From Rickettsiales bacterium (GTDB taxonomy: Bacteria > Pseudomonadota > Alphaproteobacteria > Rs-D84), in assembly GCA_031256175.1 (NCBI GenBank), contig JAIRRC010000009.1, positions 1 to 34,555 on the forward strand: DNA of 34,555 nt. The letters run 5' to 3'. The translations under genes and the position numbers were made by a program. The notes below the pieces were generated by a model that was not told the DNA's origin, searched no databases, and saw only the letters and a list, made by a program, of their open reading frames with translations. Position 1 is the stretch's first letter. Every line of letters starts with the position of its first letter. Shown here in pieces: positions 6,298 through 30,652 of the stretch.

Positions 6298-6382
6298 TTC
6301 CTTAAAGCGTGCGGGCACCGCCGCTCAATAACCCCGAAAAATAATTAGCTGCGTCGCGTCTTGGATGGATTATAAATAACCC

Positions 6383-6540
6383 CGAAAAATCCTTAGCGGA
6401 AACGCGTTTTTGAGGATAGAACGTCCAATACCAAGAAAAACCACCCGGCGTCTGGCCTTTATGGCTGCCGCGACGGGTGGTTTTTCGAAGCGTAGTGGGC
6501 GTTATAGACCAAAAACGAAAATTTCCGCTAGGATTTTTCG
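6383..6540 (-). ncRNA. Candidate structured RNA element, copy 1 (strand uncertain; coded as minus because it abuts the stop of the minus gene at 6544)
   Basis: CGAAAAATCCTTAGCGGAAA pairs with TTTCCGCTAGGATTTTTCG (one bulge). Internal GCGTT-TTTGAGGATAG-AACGT mini-hairpin and AAAAACCACCCG...CGGGTGGTTTTT hairpin. Diverged copy at 17083-17157. Confidence 0.55.
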
Positions 6541-6543
6541 TCC

Positions 6544-7668
6544 TTACAACTGCGCCAGCGCGGTCTCTAACGCGTCGCGGCGTTCCCCGTCGCCAATGGC
6601 ATCGGCCAATAGAATCGCGCCGCGCAAATCGTCCTTCGCGCCATCAAGGTCGCCCAGCTTCAATTTGATGGCGGCGCGCTTTTCGAAAGCTTCCATGGCG
6701 ATGGTCGCGGACGCGGCTTTTTCCTCCTCGTCGTCCATCTGGCCTATGACGGAAGCGACGCTGCGGATGACCTCGTCGAAGTCGCGGACAGCGCCCTGGA
6801 AATCGCCCATTCCCATCTTGGCGTCGGCGCGTCCGGCTATGTCCGGGAAATCGAGCCGCCCGACATTTTTAGCGAAACTGCTGGCCATGGTATAGTCGCG
6901 GATGGCGTCGCTGAAATTCTTGTTCCAAAGGTTGAGCTGGGCGCGCTTGCGGTAAAGCTCGTCTGCGAAAATATTCTGGTTGGCGTCGGGATAAGCGGTA
7001 TAAGCGGCGATGGCGGCGTTTATGCTCTCCATCGCGGACGGCATGTCGCCCAGCTTGACTTGCAACACCGACAAATCGAACCAAGCCATCGAAAGGTTCT
7101 CGTCCAGCTTGATGGCGGCCAGAAAGGAATCCATAGCGCCGGCCAGGTCGGTCTTCATGAAAAGGGCCTCGCCGCGATAAACATAGGCTGGCGCGAAAGC
7201 CGGGAATAAAGCGATTGCGGAATTGAATTCGGAAAGCGCCAAGTCGGGCTTTCCTGCTTTAAGGAAATCGACGCCTGCGATGATATACTCTTGGGCTTTT
7301 TCCTCTTTCTGCTCGTCGGAAAGAACGACGGCGTTGGCGACTACTGCAACCCTTGTGTCGATTTCCGGGCGGATTACGACAGGCGCGGTGGTGCCTTGGA
7401 CTTTTTCGGCGATATGCTCGGCGGCCTGGCGCGAAAATACCGGTTTGTTGGAATTGAGCGCGACCCAAGCGCCGGCGGCGGCGAACGCGACAAGCGCGGC
7501 AAGAAGAAGCAGTCGCGTCCTGCGCGACCCCTTTGCGGCCTTCTGGGCTTTTTGGGCCTTTCCTGCATCGGACTCGATGACGTCGGGCGCGGCGCCCGGG
7601 GCGCATTTTTCTTCTTTATAAGGTGCGATTTTTTCCGCTGACTTGACGGACAATTTTGATTTTGCCAT
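6544..7668 (-). CDS. TPR-repeat protein with N-terminal transmembrane helix
   Basis: RRTRLLLLAALVAFAAAGAWVAL TM segment, then repeated TPR-like helices (AYVYRGEALFMKTDLAGAMDSFLAAIKLDENLSMAWFDLSVLQVKLGD). Confidence 0.8.
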   Translation of the reverse strand: MAKSKLSVKSAEKIAPYKEEKCAPGAAPDVIESDAGKAQKAQKAAKGSRRTRLLLLAALVAFAAAGAWVALNSNKPVFSRQAAEHIAEKVQGTTAPVVIRPEIDTRVAVVANAVVLSDEQKEEKAQEYIIAGVDFLKAGKPDLALSEFNSAIALFPAFAPAYVYRGEALFMKTDLAGAMDSFLAAIKLDENLSMAWFDLSVLQVKLGDMPSAMESINAAIAAYTAYPDANQNIFADELYRKRAQLNLWNKNFSDAIRDYTMASSFAKNVGRLDFPDIAGRADAKMGMGDFQGAVRDFDEVIRSVASVIGQMDDEEEKAASATIAMEAFEKRAAIKLKLGDLDGAKDDLRGAILLADAIGDGERRDALETALAQL

Positions 7669-17073: not shown

Positions 17074-17082
17074 AATAAACTC

Positions 17083-17157
17083 AAAAATTTCTAGAGAAAT
17101 CGCGTTTTCGAGGATAGAACGCCGAATGACACTTCGAAAAATTGAGCAGAAATTTTT
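17083..17157 (-). ncRNA. Candidate structured RNA element, copy 2 (3' UTR of the minus gene at 17164)
   Basis: AAAAATTTCT/AGAAATTTTT perfect outer stem; GCGTT-TTCGAGGATAG-AACGC inner hairpin shared with the 6383-6540 element; directly upstream of the minus-strand terminator. Confidence 0.55.
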
Positions 17158-17163
17158 GTCTTA

Positions 17164-17688
17164 TTAATAAGACCCAATCACGCCGTAATAATGATTGCCC
17201 GTGTCGCGGAGCGCGGCTTCCAGTTTCGCCTCGTTAAGCCCGCCGAAAAGAACCATAACTGTTCCTCCGCTTGTCGCAATCATGTCGTGAATGCAAGTTA
17301 TCTTTTGTGAAACGACTTTGAAAAAAGCGCTGGCGGTATTGACTTCGCCAACGCTTAGATTTTTCTTGCCCGCCTTTTTCGATTCGAACTCGCTGACGTT
17401 TCGGATGACGGCCAGCTGGCATTCCGGGGAAACGATAAGCTTGTCGACAAGCTTGACGTCGCCGGCGTCGACAAGGTGCAGCCACCAGTGCTTGTTGCTG
17501 GTCATGATTGGATAATAAAAAACGGCGTCCAACGGCAAGGTGCTTATTTTAGTTGTGTCGGAAACTATTTTGGGCATAAGGCCGGAATCTTTATAAACGA
17601 TTTTTCGCGCGGCTTCATAAAGGCTTTTGTCCTCTTGCAGGGCGGCGGGACAATAGAGCAGTGAAGCGGAAGAATCGATTCGTGGCAT
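17164..17688 (-). CDS. Hypothetical protein
   Basis: Start MPRIDSSASLLYCPAALQEDKSLYEAARKIVYKDSG preferred over 17862 because TATAAT lies 6 nt upstream of this ATG and the longer N-terminus reads through repeat-like sequence. Confidence 0.65.
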   Translation of the reverse strand: MPRIDSSASLLYCPAALQEDKSLYEAARKIVYKDSGLMPKIVSDTTKISTLPLDAVFYYPIMTSNKHWWLHLVDAGDVKLVDKLIVSPECQLAVIRNVSEFESKKAGKKNLSVGEVNTASAFFKVVSQKITCIHDMIATSGGTVMVLFGGLNEAKLEAALRDTGNHYYGVIGSY

Positions 17689-17886
17689 GCCTATATTATA
17701 GCATAAAACGCGCCCGTTTTCGACCCGATTTTTCAGCCCGAATTTAAGACTTGACTCCCCCGGTTTTTCTCGTCCTTCCCGCCACCCCCGCACATAGGCG
17801 GAAGGCGGGAATCCCAAATCGTATAAATCATTGCTTAGTATGAACCGGCGATATATAAGCAATTTTTTGCTTGATATTGTAAAAAT

Positions 17887-19389: not shown

Positions 19390-22300
19390 TTAAAGGTCCA
19401 GCGTTCCCTGCTGCGGGACGCCTTCCTCGATTTTGGCGACCTCGGACGCTTCCTCTGCCTCGGCAATCTCGCGCACGCGGCGAACATATGTTCCGGTGCC
19501 GAGCGGAATCAACCGACCCACAATCAGATTTTCGTTCAAGCCTTCAAGCCTGTCGACCTGCCCGCGGATTGCGGCGTCGGTAAGAACGCGCGTTACCTCC
19601 TGGAAGGCGGCGTTGGAAATGAAGCTGTCCGAAGACCGCGACAATTTGGAAATTCCCATCAGGCGGTGCTTGTAAAGCGCGGGCTTTTTGCCATCGCTTG
19701 CGACGCGCTTGTTCTCCGCGCGCAAAGTTCCGATGTTCACTTCCTGCCCGTGCATGAAGGTCGTGTCTTTCGGGTCGATGATTTCGACCTTTCGCATCAT
19801 CTCGCGGATTATGATTTCCATGTGCTTGTTGTTGATGGACACGCCTTGAAGTCGATAGACCTGCTGCACCTGGTCGACCATGTAAGTGGCCAAAGCCTTG
19901 CGTCCTGAAATGCGCAGGATGTCTTCCGGCACCGGGTCTCCGCCGACTATGAAATCGGCCTTCTTGATGACGTCGCCGTTGTTGACCAGAATGTTGCTGC
20001 CCTTTGGAATCATGTATTCGACGGGTTTTTCGGCCGCGTCGGCCGGAAGGATTCGAACCATGATTTTCGACTTGTGCGAATCGTCGATTTCGATTTCTCC
20101 GTCGATGTCGGCGAGAACGGCCGGGTTTTTAAGGTTGCGCGCTTCGAGAAGCTCCTCGACGCGCGGCAATCCTCCGGTAATATCCTTTGTCTTCTGGTTT
20201 TCGACGGGAATGCGGGCGATGACGTCGCCGGCCTTTATGTCGTCGCCGTCGGACACATTGAGCACGGCGTAAATCGGCATCATGTATTCGAGCTTGTTCT
20301 TTCCCATGGTTATGATTTCGCCGGCGTCGTCGAGAATGGCGATTCCTGGTTTAAGGGATTTTTTGGTTATGTTCTTCCAGTTGATGATTTTCTTGGTTGA
20401 AATACCGGATACGGAATCTTCCTCTTCTTTGTAGGAAATATTGTCGATAAGGTCGCGATAAGCGACTTTTCCGGATTTTTCTGCCAGGATGACGCGCGAA
20501 TACGGGTCGGTTTCTGCGATTTTCGCGCCCTTTTCGACCATCGCGCCGTCGACGATTGCGACTTCGGAAGAATAAGGCAATTTCACGCGCGCATTGCCGA
20601 TTTTGACATATGCGTTGTGCCCCATGACGATGTTCTTGCCGCGCGAATTGACGACGATTCCGACATTTTCGAATTCGGCCTTTCCGGCAACTGGCGCGAC
20701 GACGAATCCTTCGTTTCCTCCGCTGCTTACCGCGACGCCGCCGACGTGGAAGGTCCGAAGCGTCAGCTGCGTTCCGGGTTCGCCGATGGCTTGTGCGGCG
20801 ATGATTCCGACGCCCTCGCCGATTTGGACTTGCGTTCCCTTGCTAAGGTCGCTGCCGTAGCACTTTGCGCAAAGGCCTTCGGATTCGCAGGTAAGGACGC
20901 TGCGGACTTTTATTTCTTTAAGGTCTGCGGCGTCTATCTTGCTGGCGATTTGCTTTGTTATAAGCTCGTTGCGTTTTACGATGGCGTCGCCCGCGGCGTT
21001 CTTGACGTCTTCTGCGGCGAATCGTCCCATGACGACCTTGCCCAAAGTTTTCACAATCGTGGCGCCGTCATGTATAGGCCGCTCTATGACGGATTCCGTG
21101 GTTCCGCAGTCGGTTTCGGTTATGACGATGTTTTGGGCGAGCGACACCAGGCGGCGGGTTAGATAACCGGCTTCCGCGGTCTTCATGGCTGTGTCGGAAA
21201 GACCCTTGCGCGAGCCGTGCGTCGAGGTGAAATATTCGGACACGTTGAGGCCTTCCTTGAAGTTGGAAATAATCGGCACCTCGATGATTTCGCCGGAAGG
21301 TTTCGTCATCATTCCGCGCATTCCGGCCAGCTGGCGGATTTGGGTCTGCGAGCCGCGCGCGCCGGAATCGGCCATCATGGAAATGCTGTTCCATTTGCCT
21401 GGCGCCGAAGATTTTTCCATAGCGGCAAGCGAAAGTGCGCCGACGCTGTCTGTGGTCTTCTGCCAAAGGTCGACGACTTTATTGTATCGCTCGCCGTTGG
21501 AAATAAGTCCGTTCTGATATTGTCCCTCGATTTCGCCGGCGGACTTTCGTGCGGCCTCGATAAGCTTGGCCTTTCCCTCGGGGATTACGATGTCGTCCTG
21601 CGAGATGGAGATTCCAGATTTGGCGGCCTGCTCGAACCCGATGTTTTTAAGCTTGTCTGCGACGATAATCATGTCCTTGTCTCCGCAGAATTCGTATGCC
21701 GATGCGAGAAGCTCTTCGATTTTGCCCTTCTTCATGTCCTGGTTCACAAGCGCGAAGCTCATGCCTGGCTTTTTGGGAAGGATTTCGCCCAATATCATTC
21801 GGCCAGCGGTGGTCTTGAAGGTCTTCATGGCGACGTTTCCGTCCATGTCGATTTCATTGAATCGCGCGATGATGGGGGTATGGAGCTCGATGGCCTCGTT
21901 CTGCAAAGCCATCTTGATTTCGTCCATGTTTGCGAAGCGCGGGGACTTTTGGGTCCAGTCGCCGTTGACCAGCGATATGTAATAGACGCCAAGCACCATG
22001 TCCTGCGAAGGGACTATGACGGGCGCGCCGTCGGCGGGGTGAAGGACGTTGTTTGTCGCGAGCATAAGCGTGCGGGCTTCCAGCTGCGCTTCGAGCGAAA
22101 TCGGCACATGGACGGACATGGTGTCGCCGTCGAAGTCTGCGTTGAATCCCTTGCAGACGAGCGGATGAAGCTGTATGGCTTTTCCCTCGACCAGGATAGG
22201 CTCGAACGCCAGCACCGAAAGCTTGTGCAAAGTCGGCGCGCGGTTGAGGATGACGGGATGCTGGTAAATGACCTTTTGAAGAATGTCCCAAACGATGGCT

Positions 22301-23514
22301 TCCTGGTTTTCGACCATCTTTTTGGCGGTCTTCAAAGTGTTGGCGTGGTCCATGGCCAAAAGCTCGGCATAAACGAACAGGCGGAATAGTTCCAAAGCCA
22401 TGATTTTCGGAAGACCGACCTGGTGCAGCCTAAGCGTCGGGCCTGAAACGATGACCGAACGGCCGGAATAGTCGACGCGCTTTCCAAGCAGGTTCATGCG
22501 GAATCGTCCCGACTTTCCGCGCAGCGAATCGGACAGGGATTTCAAAACGTGCTTGTTCTGGGAAACCATGGGGCGCGGCTTGTGGCTGTTGTCGAACAGG
22601 GCGTCGACGGCCTCTTGCAGCATGCGCTTTTCGTTGCGGACTATGATTTCCGGCGCGCGCATTTCTATAAGTTTTTTGAGGCGGTTGTTGCGGATGATGA
22701 CGCGGCGGTATAAATCGTTAAGGTCCGAAGTCGCGACGTGTCCGGCGTCAAGCTGGACCAGCGGGCGGAGTTCCGGCGGCAGAACGGGAATGGTGTCCAT
22801 AATCATCCAGGAAGGATTGACTCCGGAAGCGACGAAATTCTCGACCAGGCGCAGGTGTTTCTGCAAAGAACGCCTCTTTACGTCGGACTTTGTGTCGGCC
22901 AGCTCGGCGCGAAGGCGGTTGCGCTCTTCGACCATGTCCAAGGCGGCGATGATGTTGCGGACGCCCTCGGCCCCGATACCGACGCGGAATGAATCGGCGC
23001 CGAACTCTTCGATTTTCTTCTGGTAGTCGTCCTCGGAAATGACGTCATACAAACGAAGGTCGGTCAGACCGGGCTCGGCGACGATATAGTTGTCGTATGA
23101 TATGACCTGGTCCAGCTTCTTGTTCGGCATATTGTTGAGCAGTGTTGCGATTTTTCCTTCGCGCATGAACCAGTTGTGGACGACGGGTGTTATAAGCTTG
23201 ATGTGCCCCATGCGTTCGCGGCGGACCGAGCTGGCGCCGACCTCGACGCCGCAGCGTTCGCAGACTACGCCGCGGAATTTTATGCGCTTGTATTTTCCGC
23301 AGGCGCATTCATAGTCTTTTTGCGGCCCGAAAATCTGCTGGCAGAAAAGGCCTTCGGGTTCCGGGCGCAGGGAATGGTAGTCGATGGTGTCGGGCTTTTT
23401 GACCTCGCCATAGGACCAGGATTTTATTTCATCGGGCGAAGCTACGGTTATCCGCAGGGCTTCGAACGGGTCGTTGGTTTCGATTTGGCCGAAAATTTTC
23501 TGCAACATGCTCAT
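19390..23514 (-). CDS. rpoC: DNA-directed RNA polymerase subunit beta'
   Basis: [68 protein letters not shown]. Confidence 0.99.
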
Positions 23515-23530
23515 GTCTAACTCCTTTTTT

Positions 23531-23577
23531 AAGTTCCCCCCGTAGCGAGGGGTGCCCGCAGAGCGGGGTGGTCTTTT
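23531..23577 (+). repeat. Family A palindromic repeat in the rpoB-rpoC gap
   Basis: AAGTTCCCCCCGTAGCGAGGGGTGCCCGCAGAGCGGGGTGGTCTTTT. Confidence 0.85.
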
Positions 23578-26500
23578 TATTCCTGTGTTCCTTCTGCTTC
23601 CTCTTCCTGGACCTTCTCGCGGTTCTTCATCGCAAGGTTGAGGCCGATTGCCCGAAGCTCGCGCGTCAGAACATTGAAGCCCTCGGGGATTCCGGTCTTG
23701 ATGTCTGTGGAACCGCTTATGACGGCCTCATACATCTTGTTGCGTCCGGTGATGTCGTCGGACTTCACCGTCAGCATCTCTTTCAGGATGTGCGCGGCGC
23801 CGTGCGCTTCCAGGGCCCAGGTCTCCATTTCACCGAAACGCTGTCCGCCCATGTTCGCGCGGCCGCTCAGCGGCTGCTGGGTGATAAGGGTATAGTGCCC
23901 GGTGCTTCTCGCGTGAATCTTCTCGTCGACAAGGTGTTTCAGCTTCATCATATAGATGATTCCGACCGTGACGGGCCGCGCGAACTTGTCGCCCGTGACG
24001 CCGTCGTAAAGGTCGACCTGTCCCGACTCGGGAAGTCCGGCCTGTTCCAGAACCTTGTGGATTTCTTCCGGCAAAGCTCCGTCGAACGACGGGGTCGCCA
24101 TCGGCACGCCCTTTCGCAGAAGTTCGCCCTGCTGCATGATTTCCGCATTGGTCATCTTTTCGAATTGCGCGGCGATGTTCTTGTCGTCATAGACCTTGCG
24201 AAGTTTCGTGCGAAGGTCGTCGGCGGAAGCGCGCTTTGCGCGAATCTTCTCGACCATCTCGTCGATTTGCTGGCCCAAACCGCGGCTGGCGAACCCAAGA
24301 TGGGTTTCAAGAATCTGCCCGATGTTCATACGCGACGGCACGCCCAGCGGATTGAGGACTATGTCGACGGGCGTTCCGTCCGCAAGATGGGGCATGGATT
24401 CGACGGGAACGATGTTGGAAACGATGCCCTTGTTTCCATGGCGGCCGGCCATCTTGTCGCCGGGCTGAAGCTTCATCTTGTGCGCGATATAGACTTTGAC
24501 CTCTTTAAGGACGCCCGCGGTAAGGGAATTGCCTTCCTGGATTTTCTTGACCAGATTGTCGCTGCGCTCGTCCAGTTCTTTAAGGGCGATGACATGCTGC
24601 TCTTTAAGGACGTCGACCTTTTCCTGGGTGTCTGAATCCTTGACGACGATTTTCTTGATGTCGCCCAGACGGATTGTTTCAAGAACGCCCTCTGTAAGCT
24701 TGCGGTTCATGTGCGGTTTAAGGGAGCCTGCGCCGGATACAAGTATTTTGCCGAGAACAAGCGGGAACACCTGCGCGGAATATCCTTTTTCCAGAATCTC
24801 GCGCTCGACTTCGCGGGCCTTGTTGACCTTGGCGATTTTCTGCATCTCAATCATCTGGGTGCGCTCGTCTTTTATGACGCCGTGGCGTGTCAGAATGTCG
24901 ACTCCGACGACGACGCCCTCTTCTCCGGCCGCCATACGCAGCGAAGTGTCGCGGACGTTAAGCGCCTTCTCGCCGAAAATGGCGCGAAGCAAATCTTCTT
25001 CCGGGGTTGGCGAAGACTCGGCCTTCGGCGAAACCTTTCCGACCAGAATGTCGCCGGGCTTCACATGTGCTCCGACGTAGATTATGCCGGATTCGTCCAG
25101 ATTGCGCAAAGCGTGCTCTCCGACGTTGGGAATGTCGCGCGTGAAGGATTCCTGTCCAAGCTGGGTGTCCTTTGCGCGGACTTCCTTCTTGTAAATCTTC
25201 AATGAAGTGAAGGTGTCCTCGCGCGATATTTTTTCTGATATGACGATAGAGTCTTCATAGTTGTATCCGCGCCACGGCATGAATGCGACGACGACGTTTC
25301 GGCCAAGGGCCAGCTCGCCGTGCTCGGTGCAGGACCCGTCGGCTATGACGTCTCCGGCGTTCACGCGGTCGCCGGTCTTGACCAGCGGCTTTTGGTGGAT
25401 AAGCTTGTCGCTGTTCGAGCGTTCGAATTTTTTAAGGTTGTAGATATCGACGCCCATGACGACATTGCGCGAGTTGAGGCGCTTGACGACTATGCGTTCC
25501 GCATCCACCAGCTCGACCGCGCCGGAATGAGCGGCGACAAGTGCGGATTTGGAGTCGCGCGCGATGACGCCCTCTATTCCTGTGCCGACCAGCGGCGCGT
25601 CGGAACGAAGCAGCGGCACGCCCTGCTTCTGCATGTTGGAACCCATCAGGGCGCGGTTTGCGTCGTCGGATTCAAGGAACGGGATAAGTCCGGTTGCCAG
25701 GGATATGACCTGCTTTGTGGACACGTCGATAAGGTCGATTTCGTCGCGCGGGACCATGATGAATTCCTCGTCCACTCGTGCGATGACGTTTTCGTCGACC
25801 AGTCGGCGCTTGTCGTCCAGCTTGGAATTTCCCTGGGCGATTTTGCGGGTCGCTTCTTCGTCGGCGGTAAGATAGACAAGCTCGTCGGTCACGGCCCCGC
25901 CTTTCACGACATAATACGGGGTCTCGATGAAGCCGTATTTATTGACGCGCGCATAGATGGAGAAATGGTTTATAAGGCCGATGTTCTGGCCTTCGGGCGC
26001 CTGTATCGGGCAAATGCGTCCGTAATAGGTGGGATGAACGTCGCGGACGTCAAGGCCTGCGCGCTCGCGGTTAAGTCCGTCGGGTCCAAGCGCGGACACA
26101 AGGCGCTTGTGCTCGATTTCGGCCAGCGGATTGGTCTGCTCCAAAAGCTGCGACAGGGGCGAAGAACCGAAGAATTCGGAAATGGCGGCGACAAGCTGGC
26201 GCGCGTTTATGATGTCCTGCGGCGTGGACGACGCGATGTTTGCGGATGCCAGCTGCTCGCGGACGAATCGTTCGATGCGGGACATTCCGATTCGAATCTG
26301 GTCGCCCATAAGCTCGCCGACCGTTCGAACGCGGCGGTTGGAAAGATGGTCGACGTCGTCGACCTTGTCCTTGCCGTCGGTAATCGCGCAAAGCATGGCG
26401 ACTATGCGGACTATGTCGGTCTTGGTAAGCAGGCGTTCCTTTTCAAGGTCTGCGGGCTCTGCGACTTTAAGGCGGGTGTTCATCTTGAAACGTCCGACTT

Positions 26501-27746
26501 CGGACAGGTCGTAGTAGTTCTTGTCGAAGCCATAGTGCGAGAAAAGGTTGGCTGCGGCGTCGACGGTCGGGCGCTCGCCGGGGCGCATGACGTTGTAGAT
26601 GTCGATAAGCGCGGCGTCGCGCGTGGCGTTCTTGTCCTCGGCCAGGGTGTTGCGAAGATGGGCGCCGTAATAGAATCGGTCGACGGATACCAGGCTGATG
26701 TTCTGCACGCCGAGCTTTAGGATGTCTTTAAGCACCATCTCTGTAATTTCGGTCGCGGCGGGATAAAGGACTTCGTCGCCATTCATGATTGGGTCGAAGA
26801 TATATTCGCCGACAAGGGAATCCTTGGCGATTGCGAATTCTTTCGAAATCTGTTGAAGCTTGGTTATCTTGCGCAGATTGAGGTTTTCGGTCTTCGTGGC
26901 GATGACCTTTCCGGCCTTGTCCAAAAGGTCGAAGTTCAGGCGGAATTGCCCAAGCTGTTTAAGGTTCTCGAAATCGCCGATGAAGCGTTCCTTGTCGGCG
27001 CGCAGAAGAACGGGCTTGTAATATATGCCAAGGATTTCCTGGTCGCTCATTCCGCGAATTGAAACGTCGCGCGGGTTTTCCATGAACTTCGCCTCGTCTT
27101 CCTTGGTCGGCATGCAGCGCAGAAATGTCGTCATAAGGATTTTGCGGCGGCGGTCTATGCGCGCGTAAATGACGTTGCGGATTTCGTCCATGTCAATCCA
27201 TGAACCGCGCTCCGGGATTATGCGGGCGGTGTGGACTTTGCGGTCGGAAAGGGTGCCGGTTCCCTCGTCCTCGCCGAATACGACGCCGCGACTGCGGTGG
27301 ATTTGCGAAACGATGACGCGCTCTGCGCCGTTGAAAATGAAAGTTCCGGTCTCGGTCATCATGGGAAGGTCGCCCATGAAAACTTCCTGGTCTTTTATGT
27401 CGCGAAGCGCCTTCTTTCCGGTTTCCGGTTCGATGTCCCACAGGGTCATGCGGAGCTTTAATTTCAAACGCGAAGCATAGGTCAAATTGCGGGCGATGCA
27501 CTCTTCGATGGTGTAGACGGGCTCTTCCAGCTTGTATTCGACGAATGCCAGCTCGGCGGCGCCGTTGTTGTCGCTGATTGGGAAAACCTGGCTGAACACG
27601 GCTTGAAGCCCCTTGTTCTTGCGGGCGGCGGGCAGGACGTCGGCCTGAATGAATTCTTTATACGATTCGATTTGCATGCTCATAAGGTCCGGGAGTTTAA
27701 GGTCAAGTGTCCTGTGAGCGAACGATTTTCTGAATTTAAGCGCCAT
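23577..27746 (-). CDS. rpoB: DNA-directed RNA polymerase subunit beta
   Basis: ORF extends to 27767 but MALKFRKSFAHR at 27746 has GGAG just upstream. PIQAPEGQNIGLINH, DKMAGRHGNKGIVS, GGQRFGEMETWALEAHGAA. Confidence 0.98.
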   Translation of the reverse strand: MALKFRKSFAHRTLDLKLPDLMSMQIESYKEFIQADVLPAARKNKGLQAVFSQVFPISDNNGAAELAFVEYKLEEPVYTIEECIARNLTYASRLKLKLRMTLWDIEPETGKKALRDIKDQEVFMGDLPMMTETGTFIFNGAERVIVSQIHRSRGVVFGEDEGTGTLSDRKVHTARIIPERGSWIDMDEIRNVIYARIDRRRKILMTTFLRCMPTKEDEAKFMENPRDVSIRGMSDQEILGIYYKPVLLRADKERFIGDFENLKQLGQFRLNFDLLDKAGKVIATKTENLNLRKITKLQQISKEFAIAKDSLVGEYIFDPIMNGDEVLYPAATEITEMVLKDILKLGVQNISLVSVDRFYYGAHLRNTLAEDKNATRDAALIDIYNVMRPGERPTVDAAANLFSHYGFDKNYYDLSEVGRFKMNTRLKVAEPADLEKERLLTKTDIVRIVAMLCAITDGKDKVDDVDHLSNRRVRTVGELMGDQIRIGMSRIERFVREQLASANIASSTPQDIINARQLVAAISEFFGSSPLSQLLEQTNPLAEIEHKRLVSALGPDGLNRERAGLDVRDVHPTYYGRICPIQAPEGQNIGLINHFSIYARVNKYGFIETPYYVVKGGAVTDELVYLTADEEATRKIAQGNSKLDDKRRLVDENVIARVDEEFIMVPRDEIDLIDVSTKQVISLATGLIPFLESDDANRALMGSNMQKQGVPLLRSDAPLVGTGIEGVIARDSKSALVAAHSGAVELVDAERIVVKRLNSRNVVMGVDIYNLKKFERSNSDKLIHQKPLVKTGDRVNAGDVIADGSCTEHGELALGRNVVVAFMPWRGYNYEDSIVISEKISREDTFTSLKIYKKEVRAKDTQLGQESFTRDIPNVGEHALRNLDESGIIYVGAHVKPGDILVGKVSPKAESSPTPEEDLLRAIFGEKALNVRDTSLRMAAGEEGVVVGVDILTRHGVIKDERTQMIEMQKIAKVNKAREVEREILEKGYSAQVFPLVLGKILVSGAGSLKPHMNRKLTEGVLETIRLGDIKKIVVKDSDTQEKVDVLKEQHVIALKELDERSDNLVKKIQEGNSLTAGVLKEVKVYIAHKMKLQPGDKMAGRHGNKGIVSNIVPVESMPHLADGTPVDIVLNPLGVPSRMNIGQILETHLGFASRGLGQQIDEMVEKIRAKRASADDLRTKLRKVYDDKNIAAQFEKMTNAEIMQQGELLRKGVPMATPSFDGALPEEIHKVLEQAGLPESGQVDLYDGVTGDKFARPVTVGIIYMMKLKHLVDEKIHARSTGHYTLITQQPLSGRANMGGQRFGEMETWALEAHGAAHILKEMLTVKSDDITGRNKMYEAVISGSTDIKTGIPEGFNVLTRELRAIGLNLAMKNREKVQEEEAEGTQE

Positions 27747-27856
27747 CTTATTTTCTCCATCTTTCATATGGAAACAACCTGTCGTCCCGGCAGAGCCCTT
27801 CTCCGCGCGTCATTCCGGCGGAGGCCGGAATCTCAGATTGTTCCTATCCTTTTCCC

Positions 27857-27911
27857 AACTCCCCCCTTGCGGGGGAGTCGAAAACCACAAAGTGGTTTTC
27901 GGTGGGGGGAC
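27857..27911 (+). repeat. Family A' palindromic repeat
   Basis: AACTCCCCCCTTGCGGGGGAGTCGAAAACCACAAAGTGGTTTTCGGTGGGGGGAC. Confidence 0.85.
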
Positions 27912-28051
27912 TAACCACGCGATGAATTCTTGTTCGGATTTTATTTCGAACCCGGGAAGACCATCAGCCCATCTCCCCTTTTATTTCTTTTGCATCAAAT
28001 GCAATAAAAATAGCTTTCCATTTCTATTGCACTCTTTTTAATAAACCCCAT

Positions 28052-28113
28052 AAGTTCCCCTCCTGCTCCGGGGTGCCGCCCGAAGCCTTGGCGAAGGGGG
28101 GCGGGGTGGTCTT
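28052..28113 (+). repeat. Family A palindromic repeat (long variant)
   Basis: AAGTTCCCCTCCTGCTCCGGGGTGCCGCCCGAAGCCTTGGCGAAGGGGGGCGGGGTGGTCTT; its right half recurs at 29502-29540. Confidence 0.85.
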
Positions 28114-28117
28114 GCCA

Positions 28118-28181
28118 CCCCCGCAACCGCGGGGGTAGGGGTCCCCACAAACCCGTCCTGTTATGGATTGGGTTTGTGGGG
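28118..28181 (-). promoter_or_regulatory. Tandem stem-loops in the rplL-rpoB intergenic region
   Basis: CCCCACAAACCC-15 nt-GGGTTTGTGGGG (28143-28181) and CCCCCGC-AACC-GCGGGGG (28118-28137). Confidence 0.6.
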
Positions 28182-28190
28182 AAGTTGTCC

Positions 28191-28556
28191 TTACTTCACT
28201 TCGACCTTGGCGCCTGCGCCTTCAAGCTGTGCCTTAAGCGCGTCGGCTTCTTCCTTCTTGACGCCGGTCTTGACCGGTTTCGGCGCTGACTCGACGAAAG
28301 TCTTGGACTCGATAAGTCCAAGCCCCGTTATGGCGCGGACTTCCTTGATGACGGCGGTCTTGTTTTCGCCCGCGGCGGCCAGTATGACGTCGAAAGTGTC
28401 CTTGACGTCGGCGGCGGGACCGGCGGGACCGGCGGCGACAGCGACGGCGGCGGCGGCGGAAACGCCCCAAACTTCTTCAAGCTTTTTCGACAATTCGACG
28501 GCTTCCAATACGGACAGCTTCGAAAGTTCTTCTACGATTTTTTCAATATTTGCCAT
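28191..28556 (-). CDS. rplL: 50S ribosomal protein L7/L12
   Basis: [43 protein letters not shown]...EKTxFDVIL-like C-terminal domain. Confidence 0.98.
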
Positions 28557-28575
28557 TTTATTTTTCCTTTCATTT

Positions 28576-28624
28576 AGTTCCCCTCCTGCGGAGGGGTGGC
28601 GGCTTCGCCGCCGGGGTGGTCTTT
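28576..28624 (+). repeat. Family A palindromic repeat
   Basis: AGTTCCCCTCCTGCGGAGGGGTGGCGGCTTCGCCGCCGGGGTGGTCTTT. Confidence 0.88.
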
Positions 28625-28626
28625 AA

Positions 28627-29103
28627 TTATTGTTTATTTCCATACTCTTTCGAAACACGCGCAAGCCTGCTTGCCGGCTCTACCAGCATGCGTGCGATAG
28701 TCGCGCGGATTTCGTTCAAAGACGGAAGCTTCGACAGGCGAACTATTCCGCTCGCGTCCATCATTTCCGAATCCATAAATCCGCCGAGAAGAACCAGCTT
28801 CTGGTTTGCTTCGGCGAATTTGGCAAGGACTTTCGTCGCGGCCAGCGGGTCCGTCGCGAAAACGACGGCGGTCGGCTTGTGCAAAAGCTCTTGAACAGGT
28901 TCGAACGTTGTGGATTTGAGGGCGATTCGCAATAAGCGGTTTTTCGTGACCCTGAACATGGACACTGCGGGCGCGAGCTCGCGGCGGAGTTTTTCCATGT
29001 CCTTGACGGCAACGCCGTCGTTCTGGACTACGAAAAGGCCTTTTGCGGAATCAAGTTCCTGCTTCAATGCACCGACCAGACTTTCTTTATCCTGACGTTT
29101 CAT
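28627..29103 (-). CDS. rplJ: 50S ribosomal protein L10
   Basis: MKRQDKESLVGALKQELDSAKGLFVVQNDGVAVKDMEKLRRELAPAVSMFRVTKNRLLRIAL. Confidence 0.95.
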   Translation of the reverse strand: MKRQDKESLVGALKQELDSAKGLFVVQNDGVAVKDMEKLRRELAPAVSMFRVTKNRLLRIALKSTTFEPVQELLHKPTAVVFATDPLAATKVLAKFAEANQKLVLLGGFMDSEMMDASGIVRLSKLPSLNEIRATIARMLVEPASRLARVSKEYGNKQ

Positions 29104-29136
29104 TGTTTGCTCCTTTACGTTTTACTTCTTCCCGGC

Positions 29137-29540
29137 TTATTGTCATTCCGACAAGGGTCGGAATCCCAATTTATTCCCGAACTTGTCGCCGAAGGCGACT
29201 CCATTCGTAAGAACCCGCCGGGGGCTCATCCTGTCCAAAGCTTCATTTTTTCCGCCTTGTCATTCCGCGGCTTGACCGCGGAATCTCGGCATAAATAAAA
29301 CTCTTCGTCTGGAATGGAAATTAAGACTCCTCGCTTCTGTCATCCCGGGCTTGACCCGGGACCTCATCCGCTAAAAGCCGCCATTCGTCTTAGACAGGCT
29401 CGGAACAATCGGACTCGCGCCCAACCGCCCCTAATCTTTTTCCTTTGTCATCCCGGGCGAAGACCCGGGACCTCATCCTTACCCGCCACCCCGGCAACCT
29501 GTCCGCCGAAGCCTTGGCGAAGGGGGGCGGGGTGGTCTTT
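29137..29540 (+). repeat. Dense array of family B/C/A palindromic repeats
   Basis: GTCATTCCGACAAGGGTCGGAATCCC, GTCGCCGAAGGCGACTC, GTCATTCCGCGGCTTGACCGCGGAATCTCGGC, GTCATCCCGGGCTTGACCCGGGACCTCATCC, GTCATCCCGGGCGAAGACCCGGGACCTCATCC, then a family A right half. Confidence 0.85.
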
Positions 29541-29543
29541 CTT

Positions 29544-30221
29544 TTATATACTCTTCACATCCAGTTTAAGCCCCGGCCCCTGGGTGGTGCTGACGCTCGC
29601 GCTGACGATATAGTTTCCCTTGACGCTCGCGGGCTTGGCCTTCTTCAAAGCGTCCAGCAGGGCGTTCGCGTTTTCAAGCAGCGCGGGGGTCTTGAACGAA
29701 ACTTTTCCAAAACCGGCGTGAATGATTCCGGCCTTCTCCGGGCGATACTCGATTTGCCCGGCCTTCGCAAGCTCGATGGCCTTCGCGGGATTCGCGGCGA
29801 CCGTTCCAAGCTTGGGATTCGGCATAAGTCCCTTCGGTCCCAGAATCTTCGCAATCTTGGACATCATGGGCATGGCCTCCGGCGTCGCGATTACGACGTC
29901 GAATTCCATATAACCGCCGGCAATCTTGTCAACCAAGTCGCTGTCGCCGACGACATCGGCCCCGGCTTTTTTCGCTTCGCTTTGCTTGTCTTTCGTTATG
30001 ACTGCGACGCGAACTTTCTTTCCGGTTCCATGCGGCAAAGACACCATCCCGCGGATATTCTGGTCGGCCTTCGTTACATCGATTCCAAGCTTGACGCAAA
30101 TGTCGAAAGTCTCGTCGAATTTTTTCGAAGCATACTTGCGCAAAGCCTCGATTGCCTCATTCAAAGTGTAAAGCTTCTCGCGGTCGAGCTTTTCAAAGCC
30201 CTTGATTTTTTTCGTAGTCAT
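29544..30221 (-). CDS. rplA: 50S ribosomal protein L1
   Basis: DETFDICVKLGIDVTKADQNIRGMVSLPHGTGKKVRVAVITK; GPKGLMPNPKLGTV. Confidence 0.98.
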   Translation of the reverse strand: MTTKKIKGFEKLDREKLYTLNEAIEALRKYASKKFDETFDICVKLGIDVTKADQNIRGMVSLPHGTGKKVRVAVITKDKQSEAKKAGADVVGDSDLVDKIAGGYMEFDVVIATPEAMPMMSKIAKILGPKGLMPNPKLGTVAANPAKAIELAKAGQIEYRPEKAGIIHAGFGKVSFKTPALLENANALLDALKKAKPASVKGNYIVSASVSTTQGPGLKLDVKSI

Positions 30222-30223
30222 GA

Positions 30224-30652
30224 TTAGCCCTCCACTTTTATGCCCATGGAGCGCGCCTGTCCCGCGACGATGTTCATGGCTGATTCGATTGACGTGCAGT
30301 TAAGGTCGGGCATTTTTTGTTCCGCGACTTTCTTCACTTGGTCTTTTGTTATCTTGGCGACGATGTCGAGGCCTGGTTTTTTGGACCCCTCTTTAAGACC
30401 GATGGCTTTCTTGATAAGGAAGCTGACGGGCGGAAGCTTCATGATGAATTCGAAGCTGCGGTCCGCATAAACCGTTATGATGACCGGAATGGGCATCATT
30501 TTTTCCTTGTCCTTGGTCGCGTCGTTGAATTGCTTGCAGAATTCCGCGATATTGACGCCCTTTGCGCCCAAAGCGGGGCCGATAGGCGGGGCGGGATTTG
30601 CCGCGCCTGCGGGAACCGTCAACTTAACGTATCCCTTTATTTCTTTTGCCAT
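30224..30652 (-). CDS. rplK: 50S ribosomal protein L11
   Basis: [50 protein letters not shown]. Confidence 0.98.

What the first reader, a model, noticed from the sequence alone, without database searches (positions are those of the whole stretch)
6383..6540. Candidate new structured RNA (copy 1) abutting the TPR gene stop codon
A ~158-nt imperfect hairpin: CGAAAAATCC(T)TAGCGGAAA pairs with TTTCCGCTAGGATTTTTCG, pairing continues inward (CGTTTTTG.../...CAAAAACG), and there is a terminator-like central stem AAAAACCACCCG/CGGGTGGTTTTT. It shares GCGTT-TTYGAGGATAG-AACGY and its outer stem with 17083-17157. Between the copies the outer stem differs compensatorily (AAAAATCC/GGATTTTT versus AAAAATTTC/GAAATTTTT) and the mini-hairpin closing pair is G-C versus G-U. 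It begins 3 nt after a minus-strand stop.
Basis: partly seen in the sequence, partly recalled or inferred. Interest (0 to 1): 0.75.

Follow-up and report, generated by a model that had tools for sequence, protein, structure and literature searches.

The report
Replication-polarised hairpin repeat at gene ends
The hairpin is one of about 40 to 90 copies per genome of a new folded repeat found only in one genus of termite-gut bacteria; nearly all copies point the way the DNA is replicated and most sit right behind the stop codon of a gene facing the fork, so it looks like a mobile single-strand DNA hairpin rather than an ordinary RNA gene.

Summary
The hairpin at 6383-6540 is real: z = -9.7 as RNA on the + strand, -10.0 on the - strand. 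It is not one of two copies. Its covariance model finds 44, 54, 91 and 74 matches in the four held genomes of the genus (termite-gut alphaproteobacteria, about 0.8 Mb). Nothing convincing appears in about 200 other genomes of the order, in phages, plasmids or Rfam.

The stems covary strongly: 34 of 44 pairs have double changes, covariation score 0.45 against 0.17 shuffled and at most 0.09 slid. Only the window's + strand tolerates wobble pairs (57 G.T against 9 A.C; 41 of 41 copies), so a single strand is what folds.

Two facts point away from an ordinary RNA gene. Orientation follows replication: 69 of 71 copies match the gene-balanced GC skew, while gene direction does not predict it. And when the right-hand neighbour faces the fork (44 of 66 copies), its stop codon always lies within 19 nt of the element's right end (40 within 10 nt; chance expects 1.9).

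Best reading: a new REPIN-like, non-autonomous repeat that folds and moves as single-stranded DNA on the lagging-strand template, doubling as a gene-end hairpin. No mobilising enzyme shared by the four genomes was found. RNA function is not excluded.

The parts
6375..6546 (+). Whole element copy 1, from left terminus AATAACCCCG to right terminus GTCCTTA; folded strand is +
   Evidence: Covariance model match 6377-6547, 186.2 bits; conserved flank columns over 93 copies end at about -13 on the left and +6/7 on the right
6383..6402 (+). Outer stem, 5' arm (A-tract plus copy-specific part)
   Evidence: Pairs with 6522-6540; fold; helix 1 has 9 of 13 pairs with changes on both sides
6522..6540 (+). 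Outer stem, 3' arm, ending in a T-tract
6405..6412 (+). Second stem, 5' arm (CGTTTTTG)
   Evidence: Pairs with 6510-6517; helix 2 has 7 of 7 pairs with changes on both sides
6510..6517 (+). Second stem, 3' arm (CAAAAACG)
6413..6420 (+). Conserved internal loop, 5' side (AGGATAGA)
   Evidence: Near-invariant columns in alignment A1; opposite strand is TATAGAC at 6503-6509
6503..6509 (+). Conserved internal loop, 3' side (TATAGAC)
6421..6427 (+). Third stem, 5' arm (ACGTCCA), pairing with 6496-6502 (TGGGCGT)
   Evidence: Helix 4: 6 of 8 pairs with changes on both sides; G-C to G-U to A-U series
6496..6502 (+). Third stem, 3' arm (TGGGCGT)
6436..6485 (+). Central hairpin AAAAACCACCCG...CGGGTGGTTTTT, terminator-like on both strands by eye
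   Evidence: helix 6 has 6 of 9 pairs with changes on both sides; the consensus terminator scan, which allows loops of only 3-8, did not list it
6328..6371 (+). 5'-terminal fragment of an older copy directly left of copy 1
   Evidence: Left-end profile hit at 6337-6367; several full copies elsewhere have such fragments on their left
17075..17165 (+). Copy 2: internally deleted remnant abutting the stop of the minus-strand ORF 17164-17862
   Evidence: Covariance model 40.2 bits, E = 3.8e-6; the orthologous site in the species of L083 holds a full copy
6544..7668 (-). TPR-repeat protein gene whose stop codon abuts copy 1
   Evidence: Pfam TPR families, best E = 1.3e-15

Best explanation
A new, genus-specific, non-autonomous mobile repeat of about 155-170 bp that works like a REPIN or an IS200/IS605-type hairpin. 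The + strand folds as a single strand while it is the lagging-strand template, is recognised through its conserved internal loops, and inserts into single-stranded DNA at gene 3' ends, mainly behind stop codons of genes facing the fork. Once there it carries its own stop codon (TAAGGAC or TGAC at the right end read on the minus strand) and A/T-flanked hairpins, so it can replace the gene's natural 3' end and terminator. Shown: the fold, covariation, strand asymmetry, copy number, genus restriction, polarity with GC skew and stop-codon anchoring. Inferred: that GC skew marks replication direction, single-stranded DNA as the acting form, mobility by insertion rather than template switching, and terminator activity. 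Unknown: the enzyme.
For: Copies: 22 BLASTN matches in the own genome; 44/54/91/74 model matches in the four genomes of the genus. Covariation: 34 of 44 pairs changed on both sides, score 0.451 against 0.174 shuffled and at most 0.093 slid. One strand folds: G.T 57 against A.C 9 at well-paired columns, 41 of 41 copies; the + strand is more stable in 28 of 31 copies. Polarity: 69 of 72 copies follow local GC skew while 36 of 72 follow local gene strand; 69 of 71 follow gene-balanced third-position skew. Anchoring: right neighbour faces the fork in 44 of 66 copies, and in all 44 its stop lies within 19 nt; 40 within 10 nt against 1.9 expected, maximum 8 in 2000 simulations. Turnover: nearest relative lies in the same genome for 84 of 92 copies, orthologous sites hold different repeats or dissimilar copies, and copies insert into copies. 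Precedents: orientation of IS200/IS605 elements follows host replication (PMC5371812, PMC6006769); REPIN hairpins show compensatory changes (PMC3116915).
Against: No Y1/HUH transposase in three of the four genomes; the one in the fourth is not flanked by copies. No GTAG foot common to all copies. No target-site duplication and no clean empty site was found. The leading strand is inferred from GC skew plus 16S rRNA and ribosomal S8 orientation, but rpoBC/rplL lie on the other strand. Three other palindromic repeat families are polarised as well, so the polarity may be a property of these genomes rather than of this element. Covariation in long palindromes can also arise from template-switch repair.
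Confidence: 0.5

Rival explanations
1. A structured non-coding RNA or 3'-end regulatory RNA, transcribed from the + strand, dispersed in many copies; orientation follows replication because expressed RNA genes are favoured on the leading strand.
For: Strong covariation with G-U intermediates on one strand and nearly invariant internal loops, both typical of RNA.
Against: No promoter-like site near copy 1; the left flank is unconserved beyond about -13; orientation is independent of gene direction; copies are lineage-specific and turn over at orthologous sites; many are truncated.
Confidence: 0.2
2. A bidirectional transcription terminator, domesticated from a repeat and kept because it ends head-on genes cleanly.
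For: Nested hairpins flanked by A and T tracts; the right end is anchored to stop codons in 44 of 44 head-on neighbours; ordinary terminators after other genes are simple hairpins, showing the need is general.
Against: Does not explain fixed orientation with replication in the 22 copies not anchored to a head-on stop; the strand favoured by wobble pairs is not the one the abutting gene transcribes; left ends are not anchored to co-directional stops (3 against 2.0 expected).
Confidence: 0.15
3. A chromosomal single-strand site used by replication itself, for example priming or fork restart on the lagging-strand template.
For: Replication polarity with a folded + strand, spaced every several kb along contigs.
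Against: No convincing match in any other genus of the order that was searched, so it is not a general replication site; other palindromic families share the polarity.
Confidence: 0.05
4. Palindromes spread and kept symmetrical only by replication template switching, without selection on structure.
For: Fragments of old copies next to new ones and interiors swapped at orthologous sites; 56 of 81 outer-stem octamers are distinct.
Against: Internal loops stay mismatched and conserved, and mismatches are strongly of the G.T kind on one strand.
Confidence: 0.1

Closest known systems
REPINs (REP doublets forming hairpins) with RAYT/TnpA-REP transposases
   Same: Extragenic imperfect palindromes of the order of 100 nt, present in many copies, predicted hairpin in single-stranded DNA, compensatory changes, non-autonomous (PMC3116915).
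   Different: No GT[AG]G foot common to all copies, no resolvable pair of REP units, no RAYT in three of four genomes and none flanked by copies; strict anchoring to head-on stop codons.
IS200/IS605 elements and their non-autonomous derivatives
   Same: Orientation follows host replication through use of the lagging-strand template; end recognition through hairpins (PMC5371812, PMC6006769).
   Different: No transposase inside the element, whole element is one hairpin; no TnpA in three genomes.
Integron attC sites
   Same: Imperfect palindromes with conserved structure and diverse sequence, folded single strand, placed behind stop codons (own knowledge).
   Different: No integron integrase evident (only one to three tyrosine recombinases per genome, presumably XerC/XerD); ends do not match RYYYAAC...GTTRRRY; genes are not arranged as cassettes.
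Intrinsic transcription terminators
   Same: A-tract, hairpin and T-tract directly behind stop codons.
   Different: About 155 nt with three conserved internal loops and fixed replication polarity.

Membership tests
REPIN/RAYT | Y1 (RAYT) transposase gene in the same genome, flanked by copies of the repeat | tested here: not met
   PF01797 in one of four genomes, protein search finds no other, no copy near it; genomes are 86-96% complete
REPIN/RAYT | GT[AG]G tetranucleotide at the hairpin foot | tested here: not met
   Ends are TTAATAAnCTC and GTCMTTA; an internal GTAG is replaced by CTAA or ATAG in several copies
REPIN/RAYT | Hairpin with compensatory changes, extragenic | tested here: met
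IS200/IS605-type single-strand mobility | Orientation follows replication direction | tested here: met
   69 of 71 copies follow GC skew; replication direction itself is inferred from that skew
IS200/IS605-type single-strand mobility | HUH/Y1 transposase acting on the ends | tested here: not met
Integron attC | Integron integrase and R-box ends | tested here: not met
   Only one to three tyrosine recombinases per genome, not typed further; end consensus differs
IS110 bridge RNA | IS110 transposase in the genome | tested here: not met
   PF01548 in none of four genomes
Known RNA family (Rfam 15) | Match to a covariance model | tested here: not met
   No match at gathering or E up to 1
Intrinsic terminator | Terminates transcription | not testable with these tools
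   Sequence shape compatible on both strands; no expression data

The most novel reading that the evidence does not exclude
A mobile DNA hairpin that inserts at the place where the replication fork enters genes transcribed towards it, without a recognisable transposase in most hosts, so that its copies form a genome-wide map of replication-transcription conflict sites; several unrelated palindromic families in the same genomes share the replication polarity, which would mean a common, undescribed single-strand mobilising system.
Probability: 0.2. Interest if true: 0.85.

Novelty: new variant of a known kind. Interest (0 to 1): 0.62.

Why it matters
Palindromic repeats are common in bacteria, but for most nobody knows what moves them or why they sit at gene ends. 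Here a reduced genome carries dozens of copies that are nearly all oriented with replication and, when the neighbour faces the fork, always sit just behind its stop codon. This gives a sharp, testable link between single-stranded DNA at the fork, head-on transcription and repeat insertion, and a clear search target for the missing enzyme.

Tried and rejected
Rfam at two thresholds: no match. Phage and plasmid records: no match. Scans of viral contigs failed on the server three times, so that collection is untested. Two marginal model hits outside the genus (E = 0.001 and 0.005 per genome, 31-35 bits) were treated as chance for about 200 genomes. Y1 transposase, reverse transcriptase and IS110 transposase were sought as the partner: none is present in all four genomes; tyrosine recombinases are, in one to three copies as expected of XerC/XerD. 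The two reverse transcriptases found are not flanked by copies. Long-range split copies that might hold a gene were sought in about 750 kb and none was convincing. The outer-stem shuffle test was mis-registered by two bases and is not used, except for the count of distinct octamers. The idea that polarity merely follows gene direction was rejected (36 of 72).

Full report
What is in the window. The hairpin at 6383-6540 is present as described and folds far better than shuffled sequence on either strand (z about -10). Its right end lies 3 nt from the stop codon of a minus-strand TPR gene. The second copy at 17083-17157 is a remnant with its centre deleted (40 against 186 bits). Rfam has nothing like it.

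A repeat family. BLASTN finds 22 matches in the window's own 786 kb genome and 20 in each of three other genomes of the genus, which was the number scored. A covariance model built from 31 full copies finds 44, 54, 91 and 74 matches in the four genomes (these counts include fragments and probably some opposite-strand matches of the same palindrome, as seen). It finds no convincing match in any other genome of the family (96 genomes searched in all) or order (202 in all). Relatives found by RpoC are MAGs labelled Rickettsiales in GenBank, which I take from their isolate names to come from termite guts; JAIRUP010000003.1 has the length of contig G002:C4 (84,968 bp) and the same element positions, so it is very probably that contig.

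Structure. Four stems are separated by conserved internal loops, CGC/GAAAA, AGGATAGA/TATAGAC and AATACCAAG/CGAAGCGTAG. Of 44 consensus pairs, 34 have copies changed on both sides; 94% of cells pair; the covariation score is 0.451 against 0.174 when partners are shuffled and at most 0.093 when they are slid. The outer stem is nearly copy-specific: 56 distinct octamers among 81 copies. The copies are related by descent and palindromes can be repaired by template switching, so covariation alone does not prove selection. The decisive point is asymmetry: at well-paired columns of 41 copies in G002 there are 57 G.T but only 9 A.C mismatches on the element's + strand, and every copy has more G.T than A.C. 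The consensus structure was derived on that strand, which favours G.T somewhat; restricting to columns with at least 60% Watson-Crick pairs is meant to limit this. The GC skew of these contigs is only about 0.02-0.05, too small, in my judgement, for a mutation bias to give six to one. One strand, the window's + strand, is therefore the one that folds.

Orientation. Within each contig copies share a strand, with few exceptions. Over 72 full copies on contigs of G002, G003 and the window, 69 match the sign of the local GC skew but only 36 match the local majority gene strand. With third codon positions only and both gene directions weighted equally, 69 of 71 match (p = 2e-18; copies on one contig are not independent). 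16S rRNA and the ribosomal S8 gene of G003 lie on the same strand as nearby copies, as expected for the leading strand, whereas rpoBC and rplL lie on the other. If the G-rich strand is the leading strand, the folded strand is the lagging-strand template. Three other palindromic families in these genomes are polarised too (43/45, 72/85, 25/32), so this may be a general property.

Gene context. Among 66 full copies with usable neighbours, the right neighbour is transcribed towards the element in 44, and in all 44 its stop codon lies within 19 nt of the right end, 40 of them within 10 nt; random placement gives 1.9 (maximum 8 of 2000 runs). The left end is not anchored to co-directional stops (3 against 2.0). 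The conserved right terminus GTCMTTA, read on the gene's strand, supplies TAAGGAC or TGAC, so the element carries a stop codon; orthologous proteins without the element end at about the same residue, so insertion falls at the stop codon or a few nt behind it.

Turnover. The most similar copy is in the same genome for 84 of 92 copies. Three orthologous positions occupied in two species hold copies no more alike (54-63%) than random pairs, and other sites hold different repeats between similar flanks. Fragments of old copies lie beside new ones, including 6328-6371 beside copy 1. This is the behaviour of a mobile or recombining repeat.

Mechanism. The best-supported account is a non-autonomous repeat that acts as folded single-stranded DNA on the lagging-strand template and inserts at gene ends. 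It would work like IS200/IS605 elements, whose orientation follows replication (PMC5371812, PMC6006769), and REPINs, whose hairpins show compensatory changes (PMC3116915). It fails the membership tests of these families: no Y1 transposase in three of four genomes and none near copies, and no common GTAG foot. IS110 transposase is absent, reverse transcriptase is in two genomes only, and the one to three tyrosine recombinases per genome are what XerC/XerD would give. Termination by the nested A/T-flanked hairpins is plausible but untested. An RNA function is not excluded.

Noticed in passing
G002 and G003 contigs L122-L164; window 27857, 9582: Other palindromic repeat families (AACTCCCCCC..., AAGTTCCCCTCC..., GTCATTGTCGGGC...) also follow GC skew in orientation (43/45, 72/85, 25/32), and the first sits by its left end behind co-directional stop codons.
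   Followed up: partly
L023 and L024 (G000:C4:2881-2997, G000:C25:1932-2032): Two copies carry the same roughly 54-nt G+C-rich palindromic insert (CCCGGGTCCCGCGGCCGAGCC...) at the same internal position.
   Followed up: no
L143 (G000:C39) and L144 (G001:C9): Single reverse transcriptase genes in two of the four genomes, possibly of diversity-generating retroelements; not flanked by the element.
   Followed up: partly
L142, 1423-1917: A RAYT-like Y1 transposase present in only one of the four genomes, not near copies of the element.
   Followed up: partly
window 27740-28260 against L083: At the 3' end of the gene ending in ...GAKVEVK (probably rplL), one species has the element and the other a different hairpin repeat between the same flanks (AATAARCCYC / TTGTCMTTAC), as if interiors had been swapped.
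   Followed up: partly
window 19390-30652: The rpoBC operon with upstream ribosomal protein genes lies on the strand opposite to the folded strand of the elements; in G002 that is the C-rich strand, unlike in most bacteria.
   Followed up: partly
G003:C4:85673-91833: Two copies 99% identical lie 6 kb apart on opposite strands, in a stretch where the GC skew sign also changes, perhaps marking a recent inversion.
   Followed up: no
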